Assembly: GCF_006716745.1 (NCBI RefSeq)
Contig: NZ_VFPP01000001.1
Coordinates: forward strand, 2,418,001 to 2,482,000
Length of the DNA: 64,000 nt
Direction: 5' to 3'
Origin: Saccharothrix saharensis
Lineage (GTDB): Bacteria; Actinomycetota; Actinomycetes; Mycobacteriales; Pseudonocardiaceae
Made by a program: the position numbers and the translations under genes. Positions 25,454 through 43,450 of the stretch are shown here, in pieces. Below the pieces are notes generated by a model that had not been told where the DNA came from, searched no databases, and saw nothing but the letters and a program-made list of their open reading frames with translations. The number at the start of each line of letters is the position of its first letter. The first letter of the stretch is position 1.

Positions 25454-26364
25454 CGCGGCAGCCGGTAGTCCGGCCCGAGGGCGGCGCCCCGGTGCGGCTT
25501 GTACTGGTCGTACCCGCGCGGGTCGCACTGGAGGCCGCCGTTGACGCAGTGGCTGACCAGCGCCTGCAACGTGGGGCCGTCCCACGCGTTCATGAAGTCG
25601 TAGTGCCAGGTGTACCCGCGCCCGCTGGACAGCCGCACGCGCGACATGTCACCCGACACCGGGAACGCGATCTTGAACTCCAGCATCGGCACGGGCACCG
25701 GGTGCGTGGTGGGGCAGACCAGCGTCGCGCGGTCCGGGTAGGCCATGTGCGACCGGTGGTCGGCCGAGTCGAGGTCGCGCCCGTTCCAGCAACTCGGCGC
25801 CTGGTAGCGGATGTTGAGCTGGCTGCCCGGCGGGCAGTACGACGGGAAGTCCCAGTTGTGCGCGCTGTTGCCGCACTCCCAGCCCTCGACCGCGCCCGGC
25901 GCGGTGCGGAACTGGTCCTGCGTGGCCGTGGGGCTGCCGACCACGAACCGGATGCCGGCCGGGAAGGACCGGACCTCCTGGTACTTCAGGATGCCGGACT
26001 TGTAGTAGATCACCTGCGGGAAGTCGGGCACGACGAGTTGGTCGCCGTTGTAGAGCGAGGGGAACCAGTACGCCGACTTGTCGTCCGGGGTCTTGCAGTT
26101 GGTCTGCCCGTTCTTCAAGGACGCGTTGGTGCTGCTCGCGTTGACGGAGTTGTTGCCCAGGAACGTGTGCATGTGGGACGCGCCCGGCAACCCCGGCGAG
26201 ACGATCGGGTCGTCGGGCCGGTGCACGGTGACCGAGCAGTTGGCCTGGAACTCGTGGTGGGTGACCAGGTCGTCGGCCTGGGCCGGGTGGGCGGCCACCG
26301 CGAGGGTGGACGCGAGGAGGCCGGCCGCTGCCAGGGCGACCGACGCGCGGAGTTTTCGGGACAC
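25450..26364 (-). CDS. Secreted DUF1996 protein
   Basis: Exported protein of 304 residues. A Sec signal peptide (KLRASVALAAAGLLASTLAVAAHPAQA) is followed by one DUF1996 domain with the family hallmarks FQANCSVTVHRPDDPIVSPG, SHMHTFLGNNSVNAS, SAYWFPSLYNG, a central cysteine-bearing CGNSAHNWDFPSYCPPGSQL and the C-terminal YTWHYDFMNAWDGPTLQALV. Its biochemical activity is not established; many actinomycete and fungal members are secreted during growth on polymers. GTG 26364 has AGGAGG 6 nt upstream. It is divergent from the CBM32 glycosidase, and each has its own operator. Confidence 0.9.
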   Translation of the reverse strand: MSRKLRASVALAAAGLLASTLAVAAHPAQADDLVTHHEFQANCSVTVHRPDDPIVSPGLPGASHMHTFLGNNSVNASSTNASLKNGQTNCKTPDDKSAYWFPSLYNGDQLVVPDFPQVIYYKSGILKYQEVRSFPAGIRFVVGSPTATQDQFRTAPGAVEGWECGNSAHNWDFPSYCPPGSQLNIRYQAPSCWNGRDLDSADHRSHMAYPDRATLVCPTTHPVPVPMLEFKIAFPVSGDMSRVRLSSGRGYTWHYDFMNAWDGPTLQALVSHCVNGGLQCDPRGYDQYKPHRGAALGPDYRLPR

Positions 26365-26401: not shown

Positions 26402-26415
26402 GGAGAGCGCTCTCC
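26402..26415. promoter_or_regulatory. LacI-type operator upstream of DUF1996 gene
   Basis: Perfect 14-bp palindrome GGAGAGCGCTCTCC. It lies 38 bp before the DUF1996 start, just downstream of a minus-strand promoter with TTGACA (complement of 26446-26451). The same palindrome recurs at 26506, 37650, 40045 and 41163. Confidence 0.85.
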
Positions 26416-26462
26416 GAACTGAGGTTGCCCGGTGCGCCACCACCGTGTCAAGGGGCGGGTCA

Positions 26463-26491
26463 TTGACAGATCCGTAGTCGGTTCGTAACAC
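26463..26491 (+). promoter_or_regulatory. Promoter of the CBM32-glycosidase gene
   Basis: TTGACA (26463-26468) and TAACAC (26486-26491) with a 17-bp spacer form a near-consensus SigA-type promoter. The LacI-type operator begins 15 bp after the -10, at the expected start of transcription. Confidence 0.7.
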
Positions 26492-26505
26492 TTCGAGCCG
26501 GGTTG

Positions 26506-26519
26506 AGAGAGCGCTCTCC
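26506..26519. promoter_or_regulatory. LacI-type operator upstream of CBM32-glycosidase gene
   Basis: AGAGAGCGCTCTCC; the 12-bp core GAGAGCGCTCTC (26507-26518) is a perfect palindrome. It sits between the promoter and the ribosome site of the gene starting at 26554. Confidence 0.85.
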
Positions 26520-26553
26520 CGCACCTCGATCCGACAATCCGGCAGGAGACGCC

Positions 26554-28689
26554 ATGTACCGCCTCCGATCCGCCAGCACGGCGTTGGCCGCACTTCTGGG
26601 GTTCGCTGTCCTCATAGCCCTCGCCGCGGTCCCGGGCACCGCGCAGGCCGCGCCCGTGCTGCTGTCCCAGGGCAAGCCCGCCACGGCGTCCTCGACCGAG
26701 GGCGCGGGCACCCCCGCGTCGGCGGCCGTGGACGGCAACGCGGGCACCCGGTGGGCCAGCGCGTGGAGCGACCCCCAGTGGCTGCGGGTGGACCTGGGTG
26801 CCACCTCGACCCTCAGCCGCGTCGAACTCGACTGGGAAGCCGCGTACGCCACCTCGTTCCAGCTCCAGGTCTCCGCCGACGGCAACGCCTGGACCACCGT
26901 GCACACCACGACGTCCGGCACGGGCGGCAGGCAGGGCTTCGACGTCACGGGCTCCGGTCGGTACGTCCGCGTGCACGGCACGCAGCGCGCCAACGGCTAC
27001 GGCTACTCGTTGTGGGAGTTCCGGGTCTTCGGCACGCAGGGCACCAACCCGCAGCCCGGCACGGGCGTGCGCGTCACCGGTTCCCAGGGGAACTGGCAGC
27101 TCATGGTGGACGGTCAGCCGTGGACGGTGAAGGGCCTCACCTGGGGACCGCCGGCGGCGGACGCGGCCCGGTACATGCCGGAGCTGAAGTCCATGGGCGT
27201 CAACACCCTGCGCACCTGGGGCACCGACGGCTCCACCAAACCGCTGCTGGACGCCGCCGCGGCCAACGGCATCAGGGTGATGAACGGGTTCTGGTTGCAG
27301 CCCGGTGGCGGCCCCGGCTCCGGCGGCTGCGTCAACTACGTCACCGACACCACCTACAAGACCGACATGCTGAACACGATCCGGCAGTGGGTGACCACCT
27401 ACAAGGACCACCCCGGCGTGCTCATGTGGAACGTCGGCAACGAGTCCATCCTGGGCCTGCAGAACTGCTACTCCGGGACGGAGCTGGAGAACCAGCGGGT
27501 CGCGTACGCCAAGTACGTCAACGAGGCCGCGCGCGCCATCCACGCCATCGACACCAACCACCCGGTCACCAACACCGACGCGTGGACCGGTGCGTGGGCC
27601 TACCTCAAGGCGCACGCGCCCGACCTGGACCTGTACTCGGTGAACTCCTACGGCAACGTGTGCCAGGTGCGGCAGGACTGGATCAACGGCGGCCACACCA
27701 AGCCGTACATCCTCACCGAGGCGGGCCCGGCCGGCGAGTGGGAGGTGCCCAACGACGTCAACGGGGTGCCGAGCGAGCCGACGGACGTGCAGAAGCGGGA
27801 CGGCTACACGCGGGCGTGGAACTGCATCACCGGGCACACCGGGGTGTCGTTCGGCGGCACGTTGTTCCACTACGGCACGGAGTACGACTTCGGCGGGGTG
27901 TGGTTCAACCTGACCCCGGCGGGCAAGAAGCGGCTCTCGTTCTACGCGGTGCAGCGGGCGTTCGGCGGCGCGACGCCGGCCAACACCCCGCCGGTGATCA
28001 CCGCGATGACCCTGCCCACCAGCGTCCCGGCGGGCGCGCGGCTGGCCGTCGAGGTGGCGGTGAGCGACCCGAACGGCGACCCGATCACCTGGTCGGCGGC
28101 GTTCAACAGCAAGTACATCGACAACAGCGGCGGTCTCGGCTTCACACCCGTCCAGGTCGACGGCAACCGCCTGACCGTCACCGCGCCGGACCGGCTCGGC
28201 GTGTGGAAGGTGTACGTGATGGCCGAGGACGGGCGAGGCAACATCGGCATCGAGACGAAGTCGGTGCGCGTGGTCGCGCCGCAGCCGGCGGGGGTGAACG
28301 TGGCGCTGAACAAGCCCGTCACGGCGTCGTCCTACCAGCAGGTGGGCGACGGCGCGCCGTTCCCGCCGTCGAACGCGGTGGACGGCAACGCGGGCTCGCG
28401 CTGGGCCACCGACTGGTCCGACCCGCAGTGGCTGCGGGTCGACCTCGGCGCGGTGACGACGTTCCAGCACGTGCAGCTCGTGTGGGAGGGGGCGTACGGG
28501 CGGGCGTACGAGATCCAGGTGTCCGACGACGGGACGACCTGGCGCTCGGTGCACGGCACCACCACGGGCAACGGAGGCGTCGACTCGATCGACGTCACGG
28601 CGACGGGCCGGTACGTGCGGCTGCACGCCACGCAGCGGGGCACGGGGTGGGGTTACTCGCTCTACGAGTTCGGCGTCTACCGGCGCTGA
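26554..28689 (+). CDS. Secreted clan-A glycoside hydrolase with two discoidin/CBM32 modules
   Basis: Exported glycosidase of 711 residues. A signal peptide ends near AQAAP. An F5/8-type C (CBM32-like) module spans about 33-172 (ASSTEGAGTPASAAVDGNAG, DPQWLRVDLG, YGYSLWEFRVFG). A TIM-barrel related to GH2/GH5 follows (about 185-480), with acid/base candidate Glu297 (WNVGNES) and nucleophile candidate Glu389 (ILTEAGPAGEW). After a beta-sandwich linker (about 487-585), a second CBM32-like module ends the protein. The exact GH family and substrate cannot be fixed by eye. ATG 26554 has AGGAG before it. It belongs to the operator-marked locus. Confidence 0.87.
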   Translation: MYRLRSASTALAALLGFAVLIALAAVPGTAQAAPVLLSQGKPATASSTEGAGTPASAAVDGNAGTRWASAWSDPQWLRVDLGATSTLSRVELDWEAAYATSFQLQVSADGNAWTTVHTTTSGTGGRQGFDVTGSGRYVRVHGTQRANGYGYSLWEFRVFGTQGTNPQPGTGVRVTGSQGNWQLMVDGQPWTVKGLTWGPPAADAARYMPELKSMGVNTLRTWGTDGSTKPLLDAAAANGIRVMNGFWLQPGGGPGSGGCVNYVTDTTYKTDMLNTIRQWVTTYKDHPGVLMWNVGNESILGLQNCYSGTELENQRVAYAKYVNEAARAIHAIDTNHPVTNTDAWTGAWAYLKAHAPDLDLYSVNSYGNVCQVRQDWINGGHTKPYILTEAGPAGEWEVPNDVNGVPSEPTDVQKRDGYTRAWNCITGHTGVSFGGTLFHYGTEYDFGGVWFNLTPAGKKRLSFYAVQRAFGGATPANTPPVITAMTLPTSVPAGARLAVEVAVSDPNGDPITWSAAFNSKYIDNSGGLGFTPVQVDGNRLTVTAPDRLGVWKVYVMAEDGRGNIGIETKSVRVVAPQPAGVNVALNKPVTASSYQQVGDGAPFPPSNAVDGNAGSRWATDWSDPQWLRVDLGAVTTFQHVQLVWEGAYGRAYEIQVSDDGTTWRSVHGTTTGNGGVDSIDVTATGRYVRLHATQRGTGWGYSLYEFGVYRR

Positions 28690-28702
28690 GTGAACGCGCG
28701 GG

Positions 28703-28732
28703 AGGGCCGGTGGGAGCACATCCCCCGGCCCT
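28703..28732. terminator. Hairpin after the glycosidase gene
   Basis: AGGGCCGG...GGGA pairs with TCCC...CCGGCCCT (one mismatch, 5-nt loop), 14 bp after the stop codon. It is the first of three hairpins in the 256-bp gap between the convergent glycosidase and GH1 genes. Confidence 0.65.
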
Positions 28733-28815
28733 TCGGCCTTCGCACCACCGGAAGCGACCACACCACACCACCTCGGGCGACGTCGTGGTGGCCGCACCGA
28801 CGGCGATCGGCAAGA

Positions 28816-28854
28816 CCGGAGGGCCGGGGGGAGCGCGTCCCTCCGGCCCTCCGG
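28816..28854. terminator. Second hairpin in the convergent gap
   Basis: Perfect 12-bp arms CCGGAGGGCCGG (28816-28827) and its complement (28843-28854), partly extended inward. Probably a bidirectional terminator. Confidence 0.6.
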
Positions 28855-28892
28855 CCGTCGCGTCACCGGGTGCGGCCACTCCGGTGACGGAG

Positions 28893-28942
28893 CCCGGCCG
28901 CGGGGCGTGCCGGAGGAATCCCCCGGCACGCCCCCGGCCGGG
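28893..28942 (-). terminator. Terminator of the transporter-GH1 operon
   Basis: A long stem of about 20 bp with one bulged base (28893-28913 with 28923-28942; CCCGGCCG...CGTGCCGG) begins 3 bp beyond the GH1 stop codon on the minus strand. Confidence 0.75.
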
Positions 28943-28945
28943 CGG

Positions 28946-30346
<1,401 letters not shown>

Positions 30347-30387
30347 TGATCTCCTCTGGAGTTCGGATCCCGTTGTCGTGAACGGGG

Positions 30388-32387
<2,000 letters not shown>

Positions 32388-32390
32388 TGC

Positions 32391-33371
32391 TCAGCCCTCC
32401 CGTCGGGTGCGCGGGTCGAGCGCGAGGTAGGCCACGTCGGCGAGGAAGTTCGCCAGCAGCACGGACAGCGTGATGATCAGGAAGATGCCCTGCATGAGCG
32501 GGTAGTCCTTGGCGCCGACGGCCTGGAACAGCTGCAGGCCCAGGCCCGGGTAGGAGAACACGATCTCCACCAGCAGCGTGCCGCCGACGATGAAGCCGAG
32601 CGACAGCGCGAACCCGGAGACGTTGGGCAGCAGCGCGTTGCGCGCCGCGTAGGACACCATCACCCGCCGGTCGGACAGGCCCTTGGCGTGCGCGACGGTC
32701 ACGTAGTCCTCGGAGGCCACCGTGACCATCATGTTGCGCATGGACAGGATCCAGCCCGCCATGGACGAGATCAGGATGGTGAACGCGGGCAGGATGCCGT
32801 GCCGCAGCACGCTGCCGATGAACTCCAGGTCCGGGTTGGGCACCAGGCCGTTGTCGTAGGCGCCGGAGGCCGGGAAGAAGCTGTCCGGGCCGGTCAGCAG
32901 CGCGATGGCGATCAGGCCGAGCCAGAAGTACGGGATGGACGACACGAACGTGGTCACCGGGATCAGCGCGTCGGCCCACGAGCCGCGCCGCCAGCCGATG
33001 CCCGTGCCCAGGGCCGTGCCGATCGCGAAGCCGAGCACGGTCGTGATGCCGACCAGGCCCATCGTCCAGGGCAGGCCGTCGCCGATGACCTGCGACACCG
33101 GGGACGGGAAGTAGGTGAACGACAGGCCGAGGTCGCCGCTGAGCAGCTGACCGAGGTAGGTGAAGTACTGCTCGACCAGGCTCGCGTCCTTGTCCAGCCC
33201 GAACAGCACGTACAGCGACTGCACGGCGTCGCTGGTCATCTGGCCGCGCGACCGGGTGATCAGCGCCTGCACCGGGTCGCCGGGGATGGCGCGCGGGATG
33301 AAGAAGTTGATGGTGATCGCGGCCCACGCGGTGAACAGGTAGAACGCGATCCGCTTGAGGAGGTAGCTCAC
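32391..33371 (-). CDS. ABC transporter permease (DppB-like)
   Basis: Permease of 326 residues starting with the typical [20 protein letters not shown] helix. The [10 protein letters not shown] motif, a periplasmic loop, [20 protein letters not shown] and [20 protein letters not shown] (EAA-type coupling loop) are all visible. GTG 33371 overlaps the stop of the upstream ATPase gene (GTGA). It pairs with the DppC-like permease. Confidence 0.92.
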
Positions 33372-34462
33372 GGCGCCTCCCCGTGCGTCACCTCGACGAC
33401 GCGGAGCTTGACCTTGTCGCCGTCGGACAGGTCGTCGCCGTAGAGCCAGCACGCGGCGAAGTGCCCCTCACCGTCGCTGATGGCGAACCGCGGCGGGACC
33501 TTCTCCGCGCACACCTTCATGGCGTGCGGGCAGCGCGGGTTGAAGCGGCAGCCCTCGGGCGGGTTGATCAGCGACGGCGGCTCGCCCGTGCCGCCGTCCT
33601 TCTCCTGCACGGCGGGCCGGTCGGGGTCGGGCGCCGAGTCGATCAGCAGTTGGGTGTACGGGTGGGCGGGCCGCTGGGTGACGGTCTCGCTGTCGCCGCC
33701 CTCGACCACCCGGCCGGCGTACATCACGAACGTCTCGTCGGCGAAGTAGCGGGCCGACGCGATGTCGTGGGTGATGTAGAGGATCGCCAGGTGCAGGCGT
33801 TCCTTGAGGTCCCGCAGCAGGTTCAGCACGCCGAGCCGGATGGAGACGTCCAGCATGGACACCGGCTCGTCGGCCAGCAGCGCCTCGGGGTCCGCGCCGA
33901 GGGCGCGGGCGATGGCCACGCGCTGCCGCTGGCCGCCGGACAGCTCGTGCGGGAACTTGTCCACGTACCGCTCGGGCGGGGTGAGCTGCACGCGGGTGAG
34001 CAGGGCGGCCAGCGCCTCCTCCAGCTCCTGCGGCGTCTTGCCCGCGTTGCCGTGGATCTTCAACGCGCGGGTCAGGTGGTAGCGCACGGTGTGCACGGGG
34101 TTCAGCGACGCGAACGGGTCCTGGAAGATCATCTGCACGCGCTTGCTGTACGCCCGGAAGCGCCTGCCGCCCTTGGTCCGCACGGGCTCGCCGTGCAGCC
34201 GGATCTCCCCGGAGGTCCGGGGGTAGAGCTGCGCCAGCAGCCGGGCCACCGTCGACTTGCCCGAACCGGACTCGCCGACCAGCGCGGTGACCCGGCCGCG
34301 GTGCAGCCGGAGCGTCACGTCCTCGACCGCGCGCACCGAGCGCGTGGCCCGCGACAGCAGCTCTCGCCCGCGCTTGCGGACCGGGAAGTGCTTGGTCAGG
34401 CCATCGGCCTCCAGGACCACTTCAGTGGTCCCGGAGGCCGACGGTGCGGTGCTCGTCGTCAT
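33368..34462 (-). CDS. Peptide/opine-type ABC transporter ATP-binding protein (DppF-like)
   Basis: Second ATPase of the transporter (364 aa), with Walker [26 protein letters not shown], signature [15 protein letters not shown], a Walker [13 protein letters not shown] and the oligo_HPY end [14 protein letters not shown]. It is unusual only in having a C-terminal extension after the Cys motif. ATG 34462 overlaps the stop of the binding-protein gene (ATGA). It forms the usual hetero-ATPase pair with the DppD-like subunit. Confidence 0.92.
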
Positions 34463-36117
34463 GCGGCCGGCTTCAGGTGCAGGACGACGTCGAGCGCGTT
34501 CTCCAGCGTGGGCTGCAGCGGCGCGTACTGGTTGGTCTGGTCCGGCCAGCCCTCCCAGTTCTTGGTGCTGTACTGGCCGCCCGCGTTGGCCGCGGAGGTG
34601 ATGGCGACCGGCATGTCCCGCACGAAGATCTGCTGGAGCTTGTGCAGCGCCGCGTTGCGGGCGGTGTCGTCGGCGGCGTTGGCGTACTCGGTGAGCAGCG
34701 CCGTGGCCTCGGGGTTCTCGTAACGGCCGTAGTTGCCGTTGATGCCGCCCTCGCCGATCGGCTTGAACAGCGCGCCGTTCATGATGTTCTCGTAGATGTC
34801 GTACGGCGTCGGACCGTTGTTGGTCCAGTGCAGCGCGGCCTGGAAGTCACCGGTGTCCAGCGCCTTGCTCCAGGCGTCGGCGTTCGGCAGGTCGACCGTG
34901 GCCTCGATGCCGATCTTGGACACGTTGTCCTTGATGATCTCCAGGTTCGTCACGTAGTCCGACCAGCCGGACGGCACGGTCATCTTCAGCGTGACGGGCT
35001 GACCCGACGGGTCCTTGAGCTTGTCGCCGTCGAAGGTGAAGCCGGCCGAGGTCAGCTCCTTCTTCGCGGCCTCGACGTCGACGGTGACGATCTTGCCCTG
35101 GAACTCGGGCGCGATGTAGGAGTCGCCGGCGGGCGTCGGGATGCCGGTGATGTTGTCGACCTTAGGGTAGAAGTACCCCGCCTCACCCTGCATGAAGATG
35201 TCGTCGCGGTTGATCACCATGTTCACCGCGCGGCGCAGGGCCGGGTTGTCCCACGGCGCGACCTTCGTGTTGAACCACAGGCCGTGGATGCCGAGCACCG
35301 GCGGGAAGTAGAGCTTGTAGTGCTCGGGGTCCTTGGAGGTGTAGACGGCCTCGTAGTTCGGGATGAACACGAAGCTCCACTCGGCCGCGCCGGTCGCCAG
35401 CGCGGTGGTCTGCGCGTTGTTGTCGCTGTAGGAGGTGTACCGGACCTCCTTGACCTTCGGCAGCTCCTGCCAGTACGAGTCGCGCACGGTCAGCGTCACG
35501 GTCTGCGGCGTGAACGACTTGAGGGTGTACGGGCCGCTGCCGACCGGGGTCTTGACGGCGTCCGTGCTGGGGTTGGCGATCGTGGACCAGACGTGCTTGG
35601 GCACGATCAGCTGCTCGAGGATCTTCTTCTGGTTGACGAACTGCGACTTGGGGAAGCCGACGTCGACCTTGTTGCCGGAGGACGAGACCACGTCGTAGGG
35701 CACGGAGTCGACGTTCAGGCCGGGGTTCTTCTTCAGCAGCTCGAAGGTGAACGCCACGTCCTCGGCGGTCAGCGGCTTGCCGTCGGACCACGTCGCGCCG
35801 TCGCGGATGGTCAGGCTCAACTTGTGGTAGTTGTCCGACCACTCCCACTCCGTGGCCAGCCACGGCTTGGGCTTGTCCGCGGGCTTGGTCTCGTTGACCA
35901 TCGCCAGCGGCTCGAAGATCAGCCGGCGGTAGCCCAGCGAGCTGGCCGCGGACGTGTTGAGGAACGGGTTGTTGTTCTCGGTCTGCGGGCCGTTCGGCAT
36001 GCCCACGTTCAGCACGCCTTCGTTCGTGCTGTTCGCACCGGGGTTCGTGGTGGAACAGGCGGCCGAGAACAGCAGTGCAGCCGCGACGGCGAGGGCGGAC
36101 GTTCGCCTGAGTCGCAT
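34459..36117 (-). CDS. Extracellular solute-binding lipoprotein, family 5
   Basis: Substrate-binding lipoprotein (552 aa) of the SBP_bac_5 family. A lipobox (LLFSAACS) puts the lipidated Cys near residue 20. The fold is marked by [33 protein letters not shown]-like [17 protein letters not shown] and the C-terminal [20 protein letters not shown]. First gene of the transporter-GH1 operon; AAGGAGAA precedes ATG 36117. A CGAGCGCTCG palindrome and a ROK gene lie upstream, suggesting regulation by both. Confidence 0.93.
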
Positions 36118-36145
36118 GGGTTCTCCTTGTCGGGCGGGGGAAGGG

Positions 36146-36155
36146 CGAGCGCTCG
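36146..36155. promoter_or_regulatory. Short GAGCGCTC palindrome upstream of the transporter operon
   Basis: CGAGCGCTCG, a 10-bp palindrome sharing the GAGCGCTC core with the five longer LacI-type operators, 29 bp before the binding-protein start. The flanks (G/C and T/A) differ from the consensus, so binding would be weaker or by another LacI-family protein. Confidence 0.5.
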
Positions 36156-36255
36156 TAGTGCGGGCCGCGCGTGCCATCGCGGCTGGGACGCCCGGAGGCG
36201 TCCTCGTGTCGTTGCAGACTCAACCCCGGTGAGCCAAGTCACGTCAATCACGAAC

Positions 36256-36298
36256 AGGTTACAAACTTAGGCTAATTTTAAGTCGCAAACTAAGGTCC
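36256..36298. promoter_or_regulatory. AT-rich control region between binding-protein and ROK genes
   Basis: Strikingly AT-rich for this genome. It contains CAAACTTAGG (36262-36271) and CAAACTAAGG (36286-36295) as direct repeats 24 bp apart, with TTAG-G-CTAA inverted between them. A plausible operator for the adjacent ROK regulator; it also overlaps the likely ROK promoter. Confidence 0.6.
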
Positions 36299-36303
36299 GT
36301 GGT

Positions 36304-37530
36304 GTGGCACCGAAGCGCACCACCGTCCGCGACCTGCGTCGGCAGAACCGGTCGACGCTGCTGTCGACGCTGTTCTTCGACGGTCCCCTGAGCCGGCACG
36401 AGCTGTCCCGGCTGTCCGGGCTGTCGGCGGCGACGGTGTCCAACGTGACCGGCGAGCTGGTCGACGACGGGCTCGTGGTGGAGGCCGGGTCGGTGGACTC
36501 CGACGGCGGCCGGCCGCGGGTGCTGCTGCGGGCCAACCCGGCGTTCGGGCACGTCGTCGGGGTGGACGTCGGCGAGACCGGGATCAAGGTCGAGCTGTTC
36601 GACCTGTCGCTGACCCAGCTCGCCGCCCGCGACCACGCCCTGTCGTCGTCCTCGCCCGCCGCCGTCGCCTCGCTGATCGCCTCGTCCGTGCGGGACGTGG
36701 TCGCGTCGGCGGGCGTCGCGGCGTCCACCGTGCTCGGCGTGGGCATCGGCGTGCCCGGGACGGTCGAGCAGGGCACGACCGCGGTCGTGCACGCCCCCAC
36801 CATCGGGTGGGACGGCGTGCGGCTGGAGGAGCTGGTCGCCTCGGCGTCGGAGTCGGCGTGGCCGCTGTACGTGGAGAACGGCGCGAAGACGCAGGGCCAG
36901 GCGGAGATGTGGTTCGGCGCCGGCCGCGGCGCCAGGCACGTGGTGATAGTGCTCATCGGGTCCGGTGTCGGCGCGGCGGTGGTGACCGACGGCGGGGTGT
37001 ACCGGGGCGCGACCAGCTCGGCCGGCGAGTGGGGGCACACGACCATCGTCTACGGCGGTCGGCCGTGCCGGTGCGGCGCTCTGGGGTGCCTGGAGGCCTA
37101 CGTGGGCGCCGAGGGCATCCTCGACCGGTACCGCAAGGCCCGGGGCCGTGAGCTGCCCGCGGGTGACGAGCAGTCGACCGTGGCCGCGCTGATCGACTCC
37201 GCGCCCCGGTCGAAGACGGCCGCGCGCGTGCTGGAGGAGACCGCCGGCTTCCTGGGCGCGGGCATCGCGAACCTGGTGAACCTGTTCAACCCGGAGCGGA
37301 TCGTGCTCGGCGGGTGGGCCGGGCTGGCGCTGGGCGCGCACCAGCTCGACCGGATCGTCGCGGCCACCCGGGCGCACGCGTTGCGCCACCCGTACGAGCA
37401 GATCTCGATCGAACTGGGCCGGCTGGGCCCGGACGCGGTCGCCGTCGGCGCCGCCACCCTCCCCGTCGCCGCCCTCCTGGACCGCGCGGCCGACCCCCGC
37501 AAGCAGGCACCGCGCGCCGACATCGCCTGA
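36304..37530 (+). CDS. ROK-family transcriptional regulator
   Basis: Regulator of 408 residues. A winged helix-turn-helix (LSRHELSRLSGLSAATVSNV, about residues 29-48) precedes a ROK sugar-kinase-like domain with GVDVGETGIKVELFDL, GVGIGVPG, a sugar-site GEWGHTTI and the zinc motif CRCGALGCLEAY (from Cys255). It starts with GTG 36304 and is divergent from the transporter operon, which it most likely represses until a sugar or sugar phosphate binds. No sugar kinase gene is near, so it is a regulator rather than an enzyme. Confidence 0.92.
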   Translation: MAPKRTTVRDLRRQNRSTLLSTLFFDGPLSRHELSRLSGLSAATVSNVTGELVDDGLVVEAGSVDSDGGRPRVLLRANPAFGHVVGVDVGETGIKVELFDLSLTQLAARDHALSSSSPAAVASLIASSVRDVVASAGVAASTVLGVGIGVPGTVEQGTTAVVHAPTIGWDGVRLEELVASASESAWPLYVENGAKTQGQAEMWFGAGRGARHVVIVLIGSGVGAAVVTDGGVYRGATSSAGEWGHTTIVYGGRPCRCGALGCLEAYVGAEGILDRYRKARGRELPAGDEQSTVAALIDSAPRSKTAARVLEETAGFLGAGIANLVNLFNPERIVLGGWAGLALGAHQLDRIVAATRAHALRHPYEQISIELGRLGPDAVAVGAATLPVAALLDRAADPRKQAPRADIA

Positions 37531-37613
37531 CCGGGCGTTGAACCCACGCGTGTGTCGAACGCTCAGGTCCCGCGTGTCGAACGCTCAGGTCCCGTGAGTT
37601 CAACGCTCGGGTG
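37531..37613. repeat. Cluster of ~22-bp repeats in both orientations
   Basis: Two adjacent near-identical direct units (tgtcgaacgctcaggtcccg, 37554-37573 and 37576-37595), followed by a diverged unit with gttcaacgctcggg (37599-37612), and preceded by an inverted diverged unit (cgggcgttgaaccca, 37532-37546). Non-coding; lies between the ROK gene and the GH3 promoter. No transposase or spacer pattern. Confidence 0.7.
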
Positions 37614-37614
37614 G

Positions 37615-37644
37615 TTGACAGCACGGGTCGCCGGGGCCGACGCT
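37615..37644 (+). promoter_or_regulatory. Promoter of the GH3 gene
   Basis: TTGACA (37615-37620) and GACGCT (37639-37644), 18-bp spacer. The operator starts 5 bp after the -10, so repressor binding would cover the transcription start. Confidence 0.65.
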
Positions 37645-37649
37645 GAGCG

Positions 37650-37663
37650 GGAGAGCGCTCTCC
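37650..37663. promoter_or_regulatory. LacI-type operator upstream of GH3 gene
   Basis: Perfect palindrome GGAGAGCGCTCTCC, 17 bp before the GTG start of the GH3 gene and immediately downstream of its promoter. Confidence 0.88.
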
Positions 37664-37680
37664 GAGGCAAGGGGTCAGGT

Positions 37681-40074
37681 GTGGGCGAACCGGAGTCGGG
37701 ATTGCTGGTCGGCAAGGTGGACGTGGCGCGCAAGGTTCGGCTGCTGACCGGCGCCACGGTCTGGCGGACGCACGACGAGCCGGACATCGGGCTGCGGTCG
37801 ATCGTGGTGTCCGACGGGCCGATCGGGGTGCGCGGCCAGGGCTGGGACGAGCGCAGCACGTCGCTGGCCCTGCCCTCCCCCACCGCGCTGGCCGCCACCT
37901 GGGACGTCGACCTGGTGCGCCGGCTGGGCGTGCTGCTGGCGGCCGAGGCGCGGCGCAAGGGCGTGGACGTGCTGCTCGCACCCACGCTCAACCTGCACCG
38001 GTCGCCGTTCGCCGGGCGGCACTTCGAGTGCTTCTCCGAAGACCCCCTGCTCACCGGGCGCATCGGCGCGGCCTACATCACCGGCGTGCAGAGCGGGGGT
38101 GTCGCGGCCACCGCGAAGCACTACGTGGCCAACGACTCCGAGACCGAGCGCATGACCCTGGACGTCGACGTGGACGACCGCACGCTCCACGAGGTCTACC
38201 TGGCCCCATTCGAGGCGGCCGTCCGCGCCGGGGTGTGGGTGGTGATGTCGGCCTACAACGGCGTGAACGGCACCACCATGTCGGAGAGCCCGCTGCTGGC
38301 GGAACCGCTGAAGGGCTCCTGGGGCTTCGACGGCCTGGTGGTCTCCGACTGGGGCGCGATCCGGTCCACCGCGGCGTCCGCGAACGCCGCCCAGGACCTG
38401 GCCATGCCCGGCCCGGAGAGCCCGTGGAACGACCTGGTCGCCGCGGTCGGCAGCGGCGAGGTGCCGGAGAGCGCGCTGGACCTGAAGGTCGAGCGGCTGC
38501 TCCGGTTGGCCGCCAGGGTCGGCGCGCTCGACGGCTCGACCCCGGAGCCCGAGCCGAAGGAGGTCGAAGGCGCCGCGCCGCACGAGCTGCTGCGCGAAGC
38601 CGTCGCGGCGAGCACCGTGCTGCTGCGCAACGACGGCACCCTTCCGCTGTCCCCCGGCGTGAAGGTCGCCGTCCTCGGCCCCAACGCCGCCACCGCCCGC
38701 ATCCAGGGCGGCGGCAGCGCGGGCGTCTACCCCGAGTCGGTGGTGTCCTTCGTGGACGGCCTGGCGGAGGTCGCCGAGGTCGTGCACGCGCCCGGCGTCC
38801 GGCTCGCGGACCGACCCGCGCCCCTGACCACCGCCAACGCCCGCCACCCGCACCACGGCGAGCCCGGCGTGCTGGTCCGCGTGCTCGACGCCGACGGCGC
38901 GGAGCTGACCGCCGAGCACCGGTTCCTCGGCCGCGTCCTGGAGGTTCCGCTGGTCGACGGCGCGCGCACCATCGAGGTGCACGGCAGGCTGACCGCGGAC
39001 GTCACCGGCGACTGGACGCTCTCCGTGGCGGGCTTCGGCCGCCTCACGCTCGACGTGGACGGCGAGCGGCTGGTGGACGAGGACGTGCCGCTGGACACCG
39101 ACGACCCGGCCGTCATCCACCTCACCCCGCCGTACCGGCAGGCGTCCGCGCACCTGGCAGCGGGCACGACGGTGGACCTCGTCGCACGCCGCGAGCTGCG
39201 CGAGCACACCGGCACGGCGACCGTCCTGGCCGCCGACCCGCCCCGTCTGAGCGACGCCGACGAGCTGGCCCGCGCCGTCGGGATGGCCCGCGTCAGCGAC
39301 GTCGCGGTGGTCGTGGTCGGCACCACGGACGAGATCGAGAGCGAGGGCTTCGACCGCACGTCACTGGCTCTGCCCGGGCGCCAGGACGAGCTGGTGCGGG
39401 CGGTCCGCGCGGTGAACGAGCGGACCGTGGTCGTGGTCAACTCGGGCGGACCGGTCGAGCTGCCGTGGCGCGACGAGGTGGCGGCGGTGCTGCTGACGTG
39501 GTTCCCGGGCCAGGAAGCCGGGCACGGGCTGGCCGACGTGCTGTTCGGCGCCCGCGAGCCGGGCGGCAGGCTCCCCACGACGTGGGCCGCGCGCGGTGAC
39601 GACGTGCCCGTGTCGAACGTCGTGCCCGACCGCGGCGTGCTGCGGTACGACGAGGGCCTGCACGTCGGCTACCGCGCGTGGCACCGGTCCGACGCGCGCC
39701 CGGCCTACTGGTTCGGCCACGGCCTCGGTTACACGACCTGGGCGTACGAGCAGGTCACGGCCACCGGGTCGGGCGTGCGGGTGCGCGTGCGCAACACCGG
39801 CGACCGGGCCGGGCGCGAGGTCGTGCAGGTGTACGTGACGCGGCCGGACAGCGCCGTCGAACGGCCCGCGCGCTGGCTGGGCGGCTGGGCCGTCGCGTCC
39901 GCCGGGCCGGGTGACGCGGTCGAGGTCGACGTGGAGGTGCCGGCGCGGGCCTACCAGCACTGGACGGCGGACGGGTGGGCCACCGAGCCCGGGGTGTTCA
40001 CCCTCCTGGTCGGGCGGTCGGCGGGCGACACTCCCCTCACCCTCGGAGAGCGCTCTCCACACGTGGCAGAATGA
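37681..40074 (+). CDS. GH3 beta-glucosidase with PA14 insert
   Basis: Family 3 glycosidase (797 aa), predicted cytoplasmic because no signal peptide is present. The N-terminal barrel has VSDGPIGVRGQGWDE, the Lys146-His147 substrate pair (ATAKHYVAND) and nucleophile Asp223 (LVVSDWGA). The second domain begins LLRNDGTLPLSPGVKVAVLG. A PA14-type insert lies around 395-500 (TGDWTLSVAGFGRLTLDVDG), and a fibronectin-III-like end (VRVRVRNTGDRAGREVVQVY) closes the protein. GTG 37681 follows AAGGGG. Together with GH1 it would degrade imported beta-linked oligosaccharides. Confidence 0.93.
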   Translation: MGEPESGLLVGKVDVARKVRLLTGATVWRTHDEPDIGLRSIVVSDGPIGVRGQGWDERSTSLALPSPTALAATWDVDLVRRLGVLLAAEARRKGVDVLLAPTLNLHRSPFAGRHFECFSEDPLLTGRIGAAYITGVQSGGVAATAKHYVANDSETERMTLDVDVDDRTLHEVYLAPFEAAVRAGVWVVMSAYNGVNGTTMSESPLLAEPLKGSWGFDGLVVSDWGAIRSTAASANAAQDLAMPGPESPWNDLVAAVGSGEVPESALDLKVERLLRLAARVGALDGSTPEPEPKEVEGAAPHELLREAVAASTVLLRNDGTLPLSPGVKVAVLGPNAATARIQGGGSAGVYPESVVSFVDGLAEVAEVVHAPGVRLADRPAPLTTANARHPHHGEPGVLVRVLDADGAELTAEHRFLGRVLEVPLVDGARTIEVHGRLTADVTGDWTLSVAGFGRLTLDVDGERLVDEDVPLDTDDPAVIHLTPPYRQASAHLAAGTTVDLVARRELREHTGTATVLAADPPRLSDADELARAVGMARVSDVAVVVVGTTDEIESEGFDRTSLALPGRQDELVRAVRAVNERTVVVVNSGGPVELPWRDEVAAVLLTWFPGQEAGHGLADVLFGAREPGGRLPTTWAARGDDVPVSNVVPDRGVLRYDEGLHVGYRAWHRSDARPAYWFGHGLGYTTWAYEQVTATGSGVRVRVRNTGDRAGREVVQVYVTRPDSAVERPARWLGGWAVASAGPGDAVEVDVEVPARAYQHWTADGWATEPGVFTLLVGRSAGDTPLTLGERSPHVAE
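40045..40058. promoter_or_regulatory. LacI-type operator upstream of lacI-family gene
   Basis: Perfect palindrome GGAGAGCGCTCTCC located inside the last codons of the GH3 gene and 20 bp before the LacI-family ATG. It implies autoregulation of the repressor from its own promoter. Confidence 0.85.
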
Positions 40075-40078
40075 CCGC

Positions 40079-41122
40079 ATGAGCAGACCGCCGACGGCCC
40101 CGCCGACGTTGGAAGACGTGGCGCGGGTCGCCGGCGTGTCCCGCGCGACGGTCTCCCGGGTCATCAACGGCACCCGCAACGTCGACCGCCGCATCCAGGA
40201 GGTCGTGCGCGCGGCCATCGACCAGACCGGGTACGCGCCCAACCGGGCGGCGCGGTCGCTGGTGACCAAGCGGGCCGGGACGATCGCGCTGGTCGTCTCG
40301 GGCGCGGGCGACCCCGGCGCCGAGGACGCGTTCGCGACCCGCGTGTTCTCCGACCCGTTCTTCGGTCGCGTGGCCAGCGGTGTGCTCGGTTCCCTGCGCA
40401 CGCGCGGCGTGCACCCGGTGCTGATGGTCGCCGACACCGAGGCCGCCCGCGAGGACGTGCTGTCGTTCCTGCGGCAGGGCAGTGCGGACGGCGCGCTGCT
40501 CGTCTCCACCCACGCCGAGGACCCGCTGCCCGCCCGGCTGGTGCAGGCGGAGCTGCCCGCGGTGCTGTTCGCCCGGCCCGCCCGCCCGGTGCCGATCAGC
40601 TACGTCGACCTCGACCACCAGGCGGGCGCGAAGCTCGCCGCCGACCACCTGGTGCGCCGCGGCTGCACGCGGGTCGCCACGATCAGCGGGCCGCTGGACG
40701 TGCCCGCGTCCCAAGACCGGTTGACCGGGTTCCGCGACGCCATGGCGCGGCACGGTTTCCCGTACGTCCCGATCGCCGAGGGCGGCTTCACCTCCGGCAG
40801 CGGCGAGGCCGCGATGGAACGGCTGCTGGCCGAGCACCCGACGCTCGACGGGGTGTTCGCGGCGAACGACCTGATGGCCCAGGGCGCGTTGCTGGTGCTG
40901 CAGAAGCACGGCCGGCGCGTGCCGGACGAGGTGGCGGTGGTGGGCTTCGACGACAGCAGCCCCGCGCTGTCGTGCCGACCGCGGTTGACCACGGTCCGGC
41001 AGCCGGTGGAGGACATGGCGGCCGGGATGTCCCGGCTGCTGCTGGACCACGTCGAGGAACCGGGACTGCGCCCGAAGTCCGTCATCTTCGAGCCCTCCCT
41101 GGTGGTGCGCGAGTCCGCGTGA
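40079..41122 (+). CDS. LacI-family transcriptional regulator of the glycan locus
   Basis: Repressor of 347 residues. The LacI helix-turn-helix is at residues 10-31 (TLEDVARVAGVSRATVSRVI), followed by the hinge-type YAPNRAARSLVTKR and a periplasmic-binding-protein-like sensor domain (GTIALVVS..., FSDPFFGRVASGVLGSLRTR, GVFAANDLMAQGALLVLQ, VAVVGFDDS). It is the only LacI protein in the window and lies amid five copies of a GAGAGCGCTCTC palindrome, so it is the obvious candidate to bind them. The operators share the GAGCGCTC core with cellulose-utilisation CebR sites. ATG 40079. Confidence 0.94.
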   Translation: MSRPPTAPPTLEDVARVAGVSRATVSRVINGTRNVDRRIQEVVRAAIDQTGYAPNRAARSLVTKRAGTIALVVSGAGDPGAEDAFATRVFSDPFFGRVASGVLGSLRTRGVHPVLMVADTEAAREDVLSFLRQGSADGALLVSTHAEDPLPARLVQAELPAVLFARPARPVPISYVDLDHQAGAKLAADHLVRRGCTRVATISGPLDVPASQDRLTGFRDAMARHGFPYVPIAEGGFTSGSGEAAMERLLAEHPTLDGVFAANDLMAQGALLVLQKHGRRVPDEVAVVGFDDSSPALSCRPRLTTVRQPVEDMAAGMSRLLLDHVEEPGLRPKSVIFEPSLVVRESA

Positions 41123-41129
41123 ACCGTCG

Positions 41130-41159
41130 TTGACGGGGTCGTGACATCCGCGTTACGCT
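41130..41159 (+). promoter_or_regulatory. Promoter of the CBM32-beta-helix gene
   Basis: TTGACG (41130-41135), 18-bp spacer, TACGCT (41154-41159). The operator starts 3 bp later. Same layout as the GH3 promoter. Confidence 0.7.
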
Positions 41160-41161
41160 CC

Positions 41162-41177
41162 GAGAGAGCGCTCTCTC
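41162..41177. promoter_or_regulatory. LacI-type operator upstream of CBM32-beta-helix gene
   Basis: Perfect 16-bp palindrome GAGAGAGCGCTCTCTC directly at the predicted transcription start. Confidence 0.88.
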
Positions 41178-41245: not shown

Positions 41246-43450
41246 ATGAGCTCTCCCCGTTCCCTGTCACGGGTCCTGACCGCCGCGCTGGCACTCGGCC
41301 TGGCCGCGGTGCTCAGCCCCGTGATCACCCAGTCCGCGCAGGCCGCCGAGTGCGGCACGACCAACGCCGCGCTGAACCGGCCGGCCACCGCCTCGTCCGT
41401 CGAGAACGGCGGCACCCCTGCCGCCGCCGCCGTCGACGGCAACACCGGCACCCGCTGGTCCAGCGCCTTCGCCGACCCGCAGTGGCTCCAGGTGGACCTC
41501 GGCTCCACGCAACAGGTCTGCCGCGTTGTGCTGACCTGGGAAGCCGCGTACGGTCGGGCGTTCCAGGTGCAGCTGTCCGACAACGCGTCCACTTGGAACA
41601 CCGTCTACTCGACCACCACCGGCACCGGCGGCGCGCAGACCCTGACCGTCACGGGCTCCGGCCGCTACCTGCGGGTGCACGGCACGGCGCGCGCCACCGG
41701 CTACGGCTACTCACTGTGGGAGCTGGCAGTCAACACCGAGACCACCGGCGGCGTGGTGATCCCGCCGACCGACCCGCGCAACCCGGACTTCGGCCCCAAC
41801 GTGCTCGTGTACGGCCCCGGCTACGACCGGGCCGCGATGCAGGCGCGGCTGGACCAGATCTCCGCCCAGATGAAGACCAACCAGTTCGGCTCCGAGCGGT
41901 ACGCCGTGCTCTACAAGCCGGGCGTCTACGACGCGGACGTCAACCTCCGCTTCTACACCCAGGTCGCCGGCCTCGGCCTGCGGCCCGACGACGTGCGGCT
42001 CAACGGCCACGTGCGCGTCGAGGCGGACTGGTTGCAGCAGGGCGACAACCCGAACAACCTCGGCAACGCCACGCAGAACTTCTGGCGGCAGGCCGAGAAC
42101 ATGTTCGTCAACCTGCCCGCGGGCCAGATCGAGCGGTGGGCCGTGTCGCAGGCCGCGTCGTACCGGCGCATGCACCTGTCCGGCCAGGTCCAGCTGTGGA
42201 ACGGCGGCGACGGCTGGGCGTCCGGCGGCCTGATCGTGGACAGCAAGATCGACGGCGTCACCGTGTCCGGCTCGCAGCAGCAGTTCCTGACCCGCAACAG
42301 CAACCTCGCGGGCGGTTGGAACGGCTCGGTGTGGAACATGGTGTTCGTCGGCTCGCCCGGCTCGCCCGCGCAGCACTTCCCGAACCCGTCGCACACCACC
42401 GTCGACACCACGCCGGTCGTGCGCGAGAAGCCGTTCCTGTACTTCGAGAACGGCGAGTACAAGGTGTTCGTCCCGGCGCTGCGGCACAACTCGCGCGGCA
42501 CGAGCTGGGAGGCGGGCGCGCCCGCCGGCCAGTCGATCTCGCTGGCCGACTTCTTCATCGTCAAGCCCGGCACGCCGGTGGCGACGACCAACGCGGCGCT
42601 GGCGCAGGGCAAGCACCTCCTGCTGACGCCGGGTGTGCACCGCCTCACCGACACGATCAACGTGACGCGGCCGAACACCGTGGTGCTCGGCCTGGGCCTG
42701 GCGACGCTGTCCCCCGACACGGGCAGGGCCGCGATGGCGGTGTCCGATGTGGACGGCGTGAAGCTGGCCGGGTTCCTGATCGACGCCGGTGTGCAGAACT
42801 CGCCCGTGCTGCTCCAGCTCGGCCCGGCGAACTCGTCGGCCTCGCACGCGACCAACCCGACCTCGATGCACGACGTGTACCTGCGCGTCGGCGGTCCCCA
42901 GGCTGGCAAGGCCACGGTGTCGCTGGAGATCAACAGTGACAACGTGATCGTGGACCACACGTGGGTGTGGCGCGCCGACCACGGCACCGGCCCGACCGGC
43001 TGGACCGCCAACACCGGCCGCAACGGCGTCATCGTCAACGGCGACAACGTGACCGCGTACGGGTTGTTCGTCGAGCACTACCAGCAGTACAACACCATCT
43101 GGAACGGCAACGGCGGCCGCACGTACTTCTACCAGAACGAGCTGCCGTACGACCCGCCGAACCAGGCCGCGTGGATGAACGGCTCCCAGCCGGGCTGGGC
43201 CGGGTACAAGGTGGCCGACCACGTCACCACGCACGAGGCCTGGGGCCTGGGCGTGTACTCGTTCAACCAGGCCGACCCGAGCATCCACACGGCCAACGGC
43301 TTCGAGGTGCCCAACCGCTCGGGCGTGCGCCTGCACGACCTGGTGACGGTGTCGCTCGGCGGTGTCGGGACGATCGACAACGTCGTGAACGGCGTCGGAG
43401 GCGCGGCGAACATGGCCACGCAGCAGCGTTACGTCGTCAACTACCCGTGA
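41246..43450 (+). CDS. Secreted discoidin/CBM32 plus beta-helix protein
   Basis: Exported protein of 734 residues. A signal peptide ends near SAQAAE. An F5/8-type C module (about 38-165) is very like those of the glycosidase at 26.6-28.7 kb (PATASSVENGGTPAAAAVDG, DPQWLQVDLG, YGYSLWELAV). The remaining ~560 residues look like a right-handed parallel beta-helix (ERYAVLYKPGVYDADVNLRF, ILVDSKIDG-type turns such as GGLIVDSKIDGVTVSGSQQQ, VVLGLGLATLSPDTG, DNVIVDHTWVWRADHG). Proteins of this type are often labelled only 'coagulation factor 5/8 domain' or, doubtfully, 'adenylyl cyclase'. A polysaccharide-active role is inferred from fold and operator. ATG 41246. Confidence 0.82.
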   Translation: MSSPRSLSRVLTAALALGLAAVLSPVITQSAQAAECGTTNAALNRPATASSVENGGTPAAAAVDGNTGTRWSSAFADPQWLQVDLGSTQQVCRVVLTWEAAYGRAFQVQLSDNASTWNTVYSTTTGTGGAQTLTVTGSGRYLRVHGTARATGYGYSLWELAVNTETTGGVVIPPTDPRNPDFGPNVLVYGPGYDRAAMQARLDQISAQMKTNQFGSERYAVLYKPGVYDADVNLRFYTQVAGLGLRPDDVRLNGHVRVEADWLQQGDNPNNLGNATQNFWRQAENMFVNLPAGQIERWAVSQAASYRRMHLSGQVQLWNGGDGWASGGLIVDSKIDGVTVSGSQQQFLTRNSNLAGGWNGSVWNMVFVGSPGSPAQHFPNPSHTTVDTTPVVREKPFLYFENGEYKVFVPALRHNSRGTSWEAGAPAGQSISLADFFIVKPGTPVATTNAALAQGKHLLLTPGVHRLTDTINVTRPNTVVLGLGLATLSPDTGRAAMAVSDVDGVKLAGFLIDAGVQNSPVLLQLGPANSSASHATNPTSMHDVYLRVGGPQAGKATVSLEINSDNVIVDHTWVWRADHGTGPTGWTANTGRNGVIVNGDNVTAYGLFVEHYQQYNTIWNGNGGRTYFYQNELPYDPPNQAAWMNGSQPGWAGYKVADHVTTHEAWGLGVYSFNQADPSIHTANGFEVPNRSGVRLHDLVTVSLGGVGTIDNVVNGVGGAANMATQQRYVVNYP

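What the first reader, a model, noticed from the sequence alone, without database searches (positions are those of the whole stretch)
26402..41177. Local LacI regulon marked by five near-identical palindromes
GAGAGCGCTCTC palindromes (14-16 bp with flanks) occur at 26402, 26506, 37650, 40045 and 41162, before the DUF1996, CBM32-glycosidase, GH3, lacI and CBM32-beta-helix genes. In three cases the site lies just after a recognisable -35/-10 pair. One LacI-family gene sits in the middle. The core resembles the CebR site of cellulose-utilising actinomycetes but has different flanks, so it may define a distinct specificity. Two of the controlled secreted proteins have no known activity.
Basis: partly seen in the sequence, partly recalled or inferred. 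Interest (0 to 1): 0.72.

Follow-up and report, generated by a model that had tools for sequence, protein, structure and literature searches.

The report
Gene switch for fungal-wall glucan digestion
A soil actinomycete carries the same short DNA palindrome in front of many genes for secreted enzymes that digest beta-1,3-glucan, a main sugar polymer of fungal walls, and beside the repressor genes that most likely control them.

Summary
The five palindromes are real: GAGAGCGCTCTC at 26403, 26507, 37651, 40046 and 41164. The genome has 17 copies against about 0.35 expected. The set is not local. Most of the 12 outside copies precede secreted GH81, GH16, GH3, GH55-like and DUF1996 genes or a sugar ABC transporter. 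The window's "beta-helix" protein is a GH55 relative and the "CBM32-glycosidase" is GH158-like, so the substrate is most likely beta-1,3-glucan (laminarin, fungal wall), not cellulose. Ten scanned genes at CebR-type palindromes in the same genome were cellulose, xylan or mannan enzymes. Sites recur upstream of orthologues in Lentzea, Streptosporangium and Streptomyces. GGAGAGCGCTCTCC tracks the window-type LacI; TGAGAGCGCTCTCA tracks a paralogue beside the transporter. A third LacI paralogue ends another palindrome-bearing gene run, so which repressor binds which site is unproven. A 2012 paper already noted these palindromes and this gene cluster in other actinomycetes as CelR-like sites; the substrate assignment, genome-wide membership and operator classes go beyond it. 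Of the window's secreted target proteins, only DUF1996 remains without an assignable activity.

The parts
26402..26415 (.). operator GGAGAGCGCTCTCC before DUF1996 (minus strand)
   Evidence: 7 bp after a TTGACA/weak -10 pair on the minus strand
26507..26518 (.). operator GAGAGCGCTCTC (outer bases A..C) before the CBM32-GH158-like gene
   Evidence: 14-15 bp after a TTGACA/weak -10 pair
37650..37663 (.). operator GGAGAGCGCTCTCC before GH3
   Evidence: 6 bp after a TTGACA/weak -10 pair
40045..40058 (.). operator GGAGAGCGCTCTCC before lacI, inside the last codons of the GH3 ORF
   Evidence: exact or 1-2-mismatch site at a similar distance before 70 of 80 named orthologues
41164..41175 (.). operator GAGAGCGCTCTC (outer bases A..T) before CBM32-GH55
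   Evidence: 4 bp after a TTGACG/weak -10 pair
25450..26364 (-). secreted-looking DUF1996 protein, 304 aa, GTG start
   Evidence: PF09362 E 2.1e-49; limits; no PDB sequence relative
26554..28689 (+). CBM32 - GH158-like TIM barrel - CBM32 protein
37681..40074 (+). GH3 enzyme; start uncertain (GTG 37681 assumed so that the operator lies outside the gene)
   Evidence: PF00933, PF01915
40079..41122 (+). LacI-family repressor, 347 aa, candidate regulator (P0001)
   Evidence: PF00356, PF13377; recognition helix VSRATVSRV invariant in 80 of 80 named orthologues
41246..43450 (+). CBM32 - GH55 beta-helix protein, 734 aa
   Evidence: PDB 4pew E 4e-186 over residues 180-733

Best explanation
The palindromes are operators of a LacI-family repressor system for the use of beta-1,3-glucan. 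Shown here: excess and clustering of the sites, their place just after -35 elements in four of five cases, a genome-wide set of mostly beta-1,3-glucan-related genes, conservation before orthologous genes in other genera, and co-occurrence with the LacI genes. Inferred: without inducer the window's LacI binds the GGAGAGCGCTCTCC-type sites and blocks the GH55, GH158-like, GH3, DUF1996 and its own genes; a beta-1,3-linked gluco-oligosaccharide (laminaribiose or longer) releases it. That inducer would enter by the CUT1 ABC transporter that carries the sister operator TGAGAGCGCTCTCA. A LacI paralogue beside that transporter most likely reads the TGAGAGCGCTCTCA sites before the transporter, GH81, GH16 and a protease. 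The natural substrate is probably fungal wall or another beta-1,3-glucan.
For: 17 sites versus 0.35 expected. 14 of 17 precede GH55, GH158-like, GH3, GH16, GH81, DUF1996, lacI, CUT1 transporter or protease genes. All 26 sites of Lentzea cavernae were examined: 16 precede such genes, GH64 and GH76 included. Exact site upstream of 29 of 40 GH55, 37 of 44 DUF1996, 37 of 67 GH158/CBM32 and 17 of 28 GH3 hits, against 20 of 607 other ORFs. Before lacI: 34 of 80 exact, 30 with one mismatch and 6 with two at a similar distance. GGAGAGCGCTCTCC in 27 of 28 genomes with a window-type LacI and 7 of 122 without; still 15 of 19 versus 7 of 122 for sites over 20 kb from lacI. TGAGAGCGCTCTCA in 36 of 36 genomes with the transporter-side LacI (63% identity or more) and 18 of 114 without.
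Against: No binding data. Three LacI paralogues share the SRAT motif, so the cognate one is not fixed. The operator classes are not clean: of 17 own sites 4 are GG..CC, 5 TG..CA and 8 neither, two of the five window sites included; TGAGAGCGCTCTCA is also somewhat commoner with the window-type LacI (26 of 28; within-genus p 0.02) and occurs in 5 of 7 genomes with the window-type but not the close transporter-side LacI; in S. roseum the transporter itself carries GGAGAGCGCTCTCC (PMC3377646). 8 of 80 lacI orthologues have no site with two or fewer mismatches in 400 bp and 2 have one only at 280-344 bp. pckG also carries a conserved site, which glucan digestion does not explain directly. 3 of 17 own sites and 10 of 26 Lentzea sites are unassigned.
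Confidence: 0.8

Rival explanations
1. The sites are variant CebR/CelR sites and the genes answer to cellobiose as a side branch of cellulose use, as the 2012 paper implies for the transporter.
For: Core GAGCGCTC is shared; CebR-like LacI at 2282772 is 44-46% identical to the window LacI. The 2012 paper called the transporters putative cellobiose transporters. In S. scabiei the cellulose-side beta-glucosidase BglC also cleaves laminaribiose (PMC9426481, passages), so the two sugars may cross over.
Against: The genome keeps 24 separate TGGGAGCGCTCCCA sites, two of them on either side of the CebR-like gene. Ten genes beside such sites were GH5, GH6, GH9, GH10, GH26, GH3 and LPMO, seven with CBM2 (chosen by eye from 20 loci). 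Only 2 of the 31 TGNGAGCGCTCNCA sites are mixed.
Confidence: 0.1
2. The window's LacI is not the main binder; the transporter-side paralogue (6617294) or the one at 7075254 controls the sites, and the window gene is a minor or redundant copy.
For: Same-genus genomes G021 and G059 have 13 and 14 sites with no window-type LacI but with the transporter-side one. All three proteins share the SRAT motif.
Against: GGAGAGCGCTCTCC sites are scarce in genomes that have only the transporter-side LacI (3 of 15) and present in 7 of 7 with only the window-type. Within six genera that hold both states the association stays (permutation p 1e-5). lacI carries its own site in most orthologues.
Confidence: 0.25
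3. The palindromes are a repeat element or a chance product of base composition without regulatory role.
For: A different palindrome, the pattern read backwards, is also repeated in two Saccharothrix genomes, 4 and 11 copies.
Against: Counts, placement before one functional class in several genera, no reversed copy in 1.57 Mb of orthologous loci against 152 sites, and association with LacI genes.
Confidence: 0.02

Closest known systems
TGAGAGCGCTCTCA / GGAGAGCGCTCTCC sites of Catenulispora acidiphila, Streptosporangium roseum and Thermobispora bispora (PMC3377646, 2012; section 8 read)
   Same: Same palindromes; in S. roseum the same kind of cluster (LacI, two CBM32 proteins, a GH3); in C. acidiphila the transporter with two copies, a LacI with a GH5-annotated gene, and two GH16 genes that may be endo-1,3-beta-glucanases.
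   Different: Described there as CelR-related sites near few genes. Here they form a 17-site genome-wide set with GH55, GH158-like, GH81 and DUF1996, with operator classes that track different LacI paralogues.
CebR/CelR regulon of actinomycetes (TGGGAGCGCTCCCA; PMC4898821 and PMC3377646, passages)
   Same: LacI-family repressor, 14-bp palindrome with GAGCGCTC core, secreted glycosidases plus CUT1 transporter and intracellular glucosidase.
   Different: One base per half-site differs; target genes are beta-1,3-glucan enzymes with CBM32/CBM6 rather than cellulases with CBM2.
BglR regulon of Thermotoga (PMC3750489, passages)
   Different: BglR is a ROK-family protein controlling one operon; here the candidates are LacI-family proteins with dispersed targets.

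Membership tests
LacI-family repressor | LacI HTH plus periplasmic-binding-protein-like sensor domain | tested here: met
   PF00356 58.1 bits (cut-off 27) and PF13377 121.3 bits
LacI-family repressor | Binds a palindromic operator and is released by a sugar | not testable with these tools
   Only indirect: site before its own gene, co-occurrence
CebR/CelR regulon | Operator TGGGAGCGCTCCCA | tested here: not met
   All five window sites have A, not G, at the third base of the half-site
CebR/CelR regulon | Target genes are cellulases | tested here: not met
   GH55, GH158-like, GH3, GH16, GH81, DUF1996
CebR/CelR regulon | Cellobiose as inducer | not testable with these tools
   No ligand data
GH55 | Full-length homology to a solved GH55 beta-helix enzyme | tested here: met
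   4pew, E 4e-186, residues 180-733. That 4pew is the GH55 laminarinase SACTE_4363 is recalled; the file says 'putative secreted protein'; PMC12772271 (passage) calls SACTE_4363 a characterised GH55 laminarinase
GH55 | Exo-beta-1,3-glucanase activity | not tested
   Needs an assay
GH158 | Homology to a solved GH158 protein over the TIM barrel | tested here: met
   9oro 'Glycoside hydrolase family 158' E 2.6e-33 over residues 162-572; 6pal E 2.5e-20
GH158 | Catalytic residues and beta-1,3-glucanase activity | not tested
   Catalytic residues were not checked; written as GH158-like
DUF1996 (PF09362) | Pfam profile and the HxH, DxSxYW, HxD motifs of the fungal proteins | tested here: met
   E 2.1e-49; H64, H66, D95, S97, Y99, W100, H254, D256 invariant in 43 bacterial sequences; fungal motif from PMC4738358

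The most novel reading that the evidence does not exclude
Actinomycetes hold a dedicated fungal-wall digestion regulon with operator dialects read by paralogous LacI repressors: GGAGAGCGCTCTCC for the CBM32-GH55/GH158-like/GH3/DUF1996 set, and TGAGAGCGCTCTCA for GH81, GH16, GH64, the GH76 enzyme, a secreted alpha-lytic-type protease and the oligosaccharide transporter. DUF1996 would then be a secreted beta-1,3-glucan-active or glucan-binding protein of unmatched fold that bacteria share with fungi.
Probability: 0.4. Interest if true: 0.62.

Novelty: new member of a known kind. Interest (0 to 1): 0.5.

Why it matters
It would give actinomycetes a counterpart of CebR for beta-1,3-glucan, show how one genome keeps plant-wall and fungal-wall digestion apart with operators that differ by one base per half-site, give a simple motif for finding fungal-wall-digesting enzymes in genomes, and give a testable function to DUF1996, a domain studied so far mainly in fungi (as far as the listing shows).

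Tried and rejected
Chance or repeat element: rejected on counts, placement and conservation. Variant CebR site: rejected as main reading on target genes. Local-only regulon: rejected. The ROK / Opp-type ABC / GH1 block inside the window as part of the regulon: not supported; 0 of 22, 0 of 6 and 0 of 21 orthologues in the named loci have the exact site (one ROK has a one-mismatch site), although an SBP5 gene elsewhere in Lentzea has a site (L199). DUF1996 function by sequence or fold: no relative in the PDB by sequence (best E 1.2) and no Foldseek match at E 0.001 or better (best 0.15); the model has mean pLDDT 81.4, but two of the five models were poor, 51.9 and 51.8. Confound that GG sites vanish together with the cluster: checked by dropping sites within 20 kb of lacI (covers 19 of the 28 genomes, those whose places were printed, and not all places of G057 and G142). 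In one search the 'gha' hits include proteins that match by CBM32 alone. LacI paralogues: 30 of the 46 LacI matches in the genome were compared. The identity cut-offs for 'window-type' and 'transporter-side' LacI were set after seeing the tables, so the p-values are descriptive; a looser cut-off for the latter (58%) gives 44 of 46 versus 10 of 104. Paper searches for a LacI beta-1,3-glucan regulon in actinomycetes. One search matched mostly unrelated words beginning with 'cebr', and searches returned nothing. One search gave two papers with the 12-mer; the second (PMC9657692, sugarcane leaf scald) I saw only in the listing.
Full report
Observation. The five palindromes are exact copies of GAGAGCGCTCTC. 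The genome (8.92 Mb, one contig) is most likely a Saccharothrix: the nearest named LacI orthologues, 92-93% identical, are S. carnea and Saccharothrix sp. S26. It has 17 copies; an order-2 Markov model of the window predicts 0.35, and the pattern read backwards has 4. Four window sites sit 4-15 bp after a TTGAC[A/G] -35 with a weak -10; the fifth lies just before lacI, in the last codons of the GH3 ORF.

Target genes in the window. DUF1996; CBM32 - GH158-like - CBM32; GH3; lacI; CBM32-GH55. The CBM32 modules are closest to those of glucanase/chitosanase entries 2rv9 and 4zxe. That GH55, GH81, GH158 and many GH16 enzymes act on beta-1,3-glucan is recalled family knowledge; Pfam itself describes GH64 as beta-1,3-glucanase.

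Target genes outside. CBM32x2-GH3 (L007); GH81-CBM6 (L008); GH16-CBM6 (L009); a CUT1 solute-binding protein with two sites 14 bp apart and a GH1-like gene downstream, the latter named by eye (L012; L045); CBM32-DUF1996, CBM32-GH16 and a LacI paralogue in one run of genes with two sites (L013, L046); a GH55-like gene (L014: no Pfam match; its place is taken in G127 by a gene 82% identical to it and 51% identical to the window's GH55); a secreted-looking protein with an alpha-lytic protease prodomain (L005). Less clear: pckG about 300 bp downstream (L010), a CUT1 SBP/GntR pair (L006), and L011, where the site lies inside a predicted ORF. So 14 of 17 sites fit one theme.

Independent genome. All 26 of its sites were examined (ten proteins were scanned with Pfam, the genes at L201, L205 and L206 were named by similarity). 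Sixteen lie before GH76, GH64, GH16 (three genes, one with CBM32), DUF1996, two copies of the window-type cluster, the CUT1 transporter, an SBP5 gene and the same type of protease. Ten do not; seven of these ten have C as left outer base, which none of the sixteen has. In three other Saccharothrix genomes I fetched 16 stretches that cover the TGAGAGCGCTCTCA sites; 14 carry orthologues of the own-genome targets (CUT1 3, GH16 3, GH81 3, protease 2, pckG 2, GH55-like 1) and 2 do not.

Footprint. In 80 named loci around LacI orthologues (Saccharothrix, Lentzea, Streptosporangium, Nonomuraea, Streptomyces and others), 34 have the exact site within 400 bp upstream of lacI, 30 have a one-mismatch site at -33 to -71, 6 a two-mismatch site at -35 to -60, 2 a one-mismatch site only at -280 or -344, and 8 have nothing better than three mismatches. 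The loci hold 152 exact sites and no copy of the reversed pattern in 1.57 Mb. Exact sites lie in the 450 bp upstream (plus 30 bp of gene) of 29 of 40 GH55, 37 of 44 DUF1996, 37 of 67 GH158/CBM32 and 17 of 28 GH3 hits, against 20 of 607 other ORFs; ROK 0 of 22, SBP5 0 of 6, GH1 0 of 21.

Which LacI. Of 46 LacI matches in the genome I compared 30. Three paralogues lie at such sites: the window's; one at 7075254 (57-59% identical); one at 6617294 (40%), the last with a three-mismatch site about 48 bp before its start. They share SRAT in the recognition helix; the CebR-like one at 2282772 has SKST. In window-type orthologues VSRATVSRV is invariant in 80 of 80. Over 150 family genomes, GGAGAGCGCTCTCC occurs in 27 of 28 with a window-type LacI (E 1e-120 or better) and 7 of 122 without. 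TGAGAGCGCTCTCA occurs in 36 of 36 with a transporter-side LacI of 63% identity or more and 18 of 114 without. Genomes with one type only: window-type only, GG in 7 of 7 and TG in 5 of 7; transporter-side only, GG in 3 of 15 and TG in 15 of 15. Within six genera that hold both states, the GG association with window-type LacI has permutation p 1e-5; the TG count also leans that way, p 0.02. It is not only loss of the cluster: GG sites more than 20 kb from lacI occur in 15 of 19 genomes against 7 of 122. Cut-offs were chosen after seeing the tables, so these p-values are descriptive. Of the 17 own sites, 4 are GG..CC, 5 TG..CA and 8 have other outer bases, so the classes are tendencies, not rules; the S. 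roseum transporter carries the GG version.

Contrast with cellulose. The genome has 24 TGGGAGCGCTCCCA sites. Twenty loci were fetched (one holds a mixed site). Ten secreted-looking genes were picked by eye and scanned: GH26, GH5, two LPMO, two GH3, GH9, two GH6, GH10, seven of them with CBM2. In some other loci no gene, or a gene that did not look like a glycosidase, was nearest.

Prior art. PMC3377646 (section 8 read, other passages) reported TGAGAGCGCTCTCA twice before the Caci_5330 transporter, before a LacI/GH5 pair and before two GH16 genes that may be endo-1,3-beta-glucanases, and GGAGAGCGCTCTCC before Sros_3721-3725, with a LacI, two CBM32 proteins and a GH3. It treated them as CelR-related. 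PMC3750489 (passages) describes ROK-family BglR for laminarinase in Thermotoga. PMC4898821 (passages) gives the CebR site. PMC9426481 (passages) shows that BglC cleaves laminaribiose. PMC7679414 (one passage) notes DUF1996 with CBM1, CBM6 or WSC domains and suggests a link to polysaccharide degradation. PMC4738358 (abstract and passages) gives the fungal DUF1996 motif; H64xH66, D95xSxYW and H254xD256 are kept here. I found no description of a LacI beta-1,3-glucan regulon in actinomycetes, which cover open-licence papers only.

Verdict. A real, conserved, genome-wide LacI-type regulon, most likely for beta-1,3-glucan and probably fungal wall. It works like the CebR system but fails two of its defining features. 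Which repressor binds and what the inducer is remain to be tested.

Noticed in passing
window 28946-37530: ROK regulator, Opp-type ABC transporter (SBP5) and GH1 gene lie inside the cluster but carry no palindrome, nor do their orthologues in the named loci; probably a second beta-glucoside system under the ROK protein.
   Followed up: partly
L010 3951 (genome 4959649-4959662); L214; L226: A TGAGAGCGCTCTCA site lies about 300 bp before the PEP carboxykinase gene in three Saccharothrix genomes; why a glucan regulator would control pckG is unexplained.
   Followed up: partly
L005 4086; L200 2960; L212; L220: A secreted-looking protease with an alpha-lytic prodomain carries the site in Saccharothrix and Lentzea; perhaps it helps to open fungal walls.
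   Followed up: partly
L194 2936: In Lentzea a TGAGAGCGCTCTCA site precedes a GH76 gene; GH76 enzymes act on alpha-mannan (recalled), which points to fungal wall rather than algal laminarin.
   Followed up: no
L045 2695-2722 (genome 6611694-6611721): Two TGAGAGCGCTCTCA operators lie end to end, 14 bp apart, before the CUT1 transporter; same spacing in G127 C8:92907/92921.
   Followed up: no
genomes G000 and G143: The reversed palindrome used as control is itself repeated: 4 copies in G000 and 11 in G143 for the 12-mer, 4 and 10 for the 14-mer with T..A read backwards. Possibly an unrelated repeat or operator.
   Followed up: no
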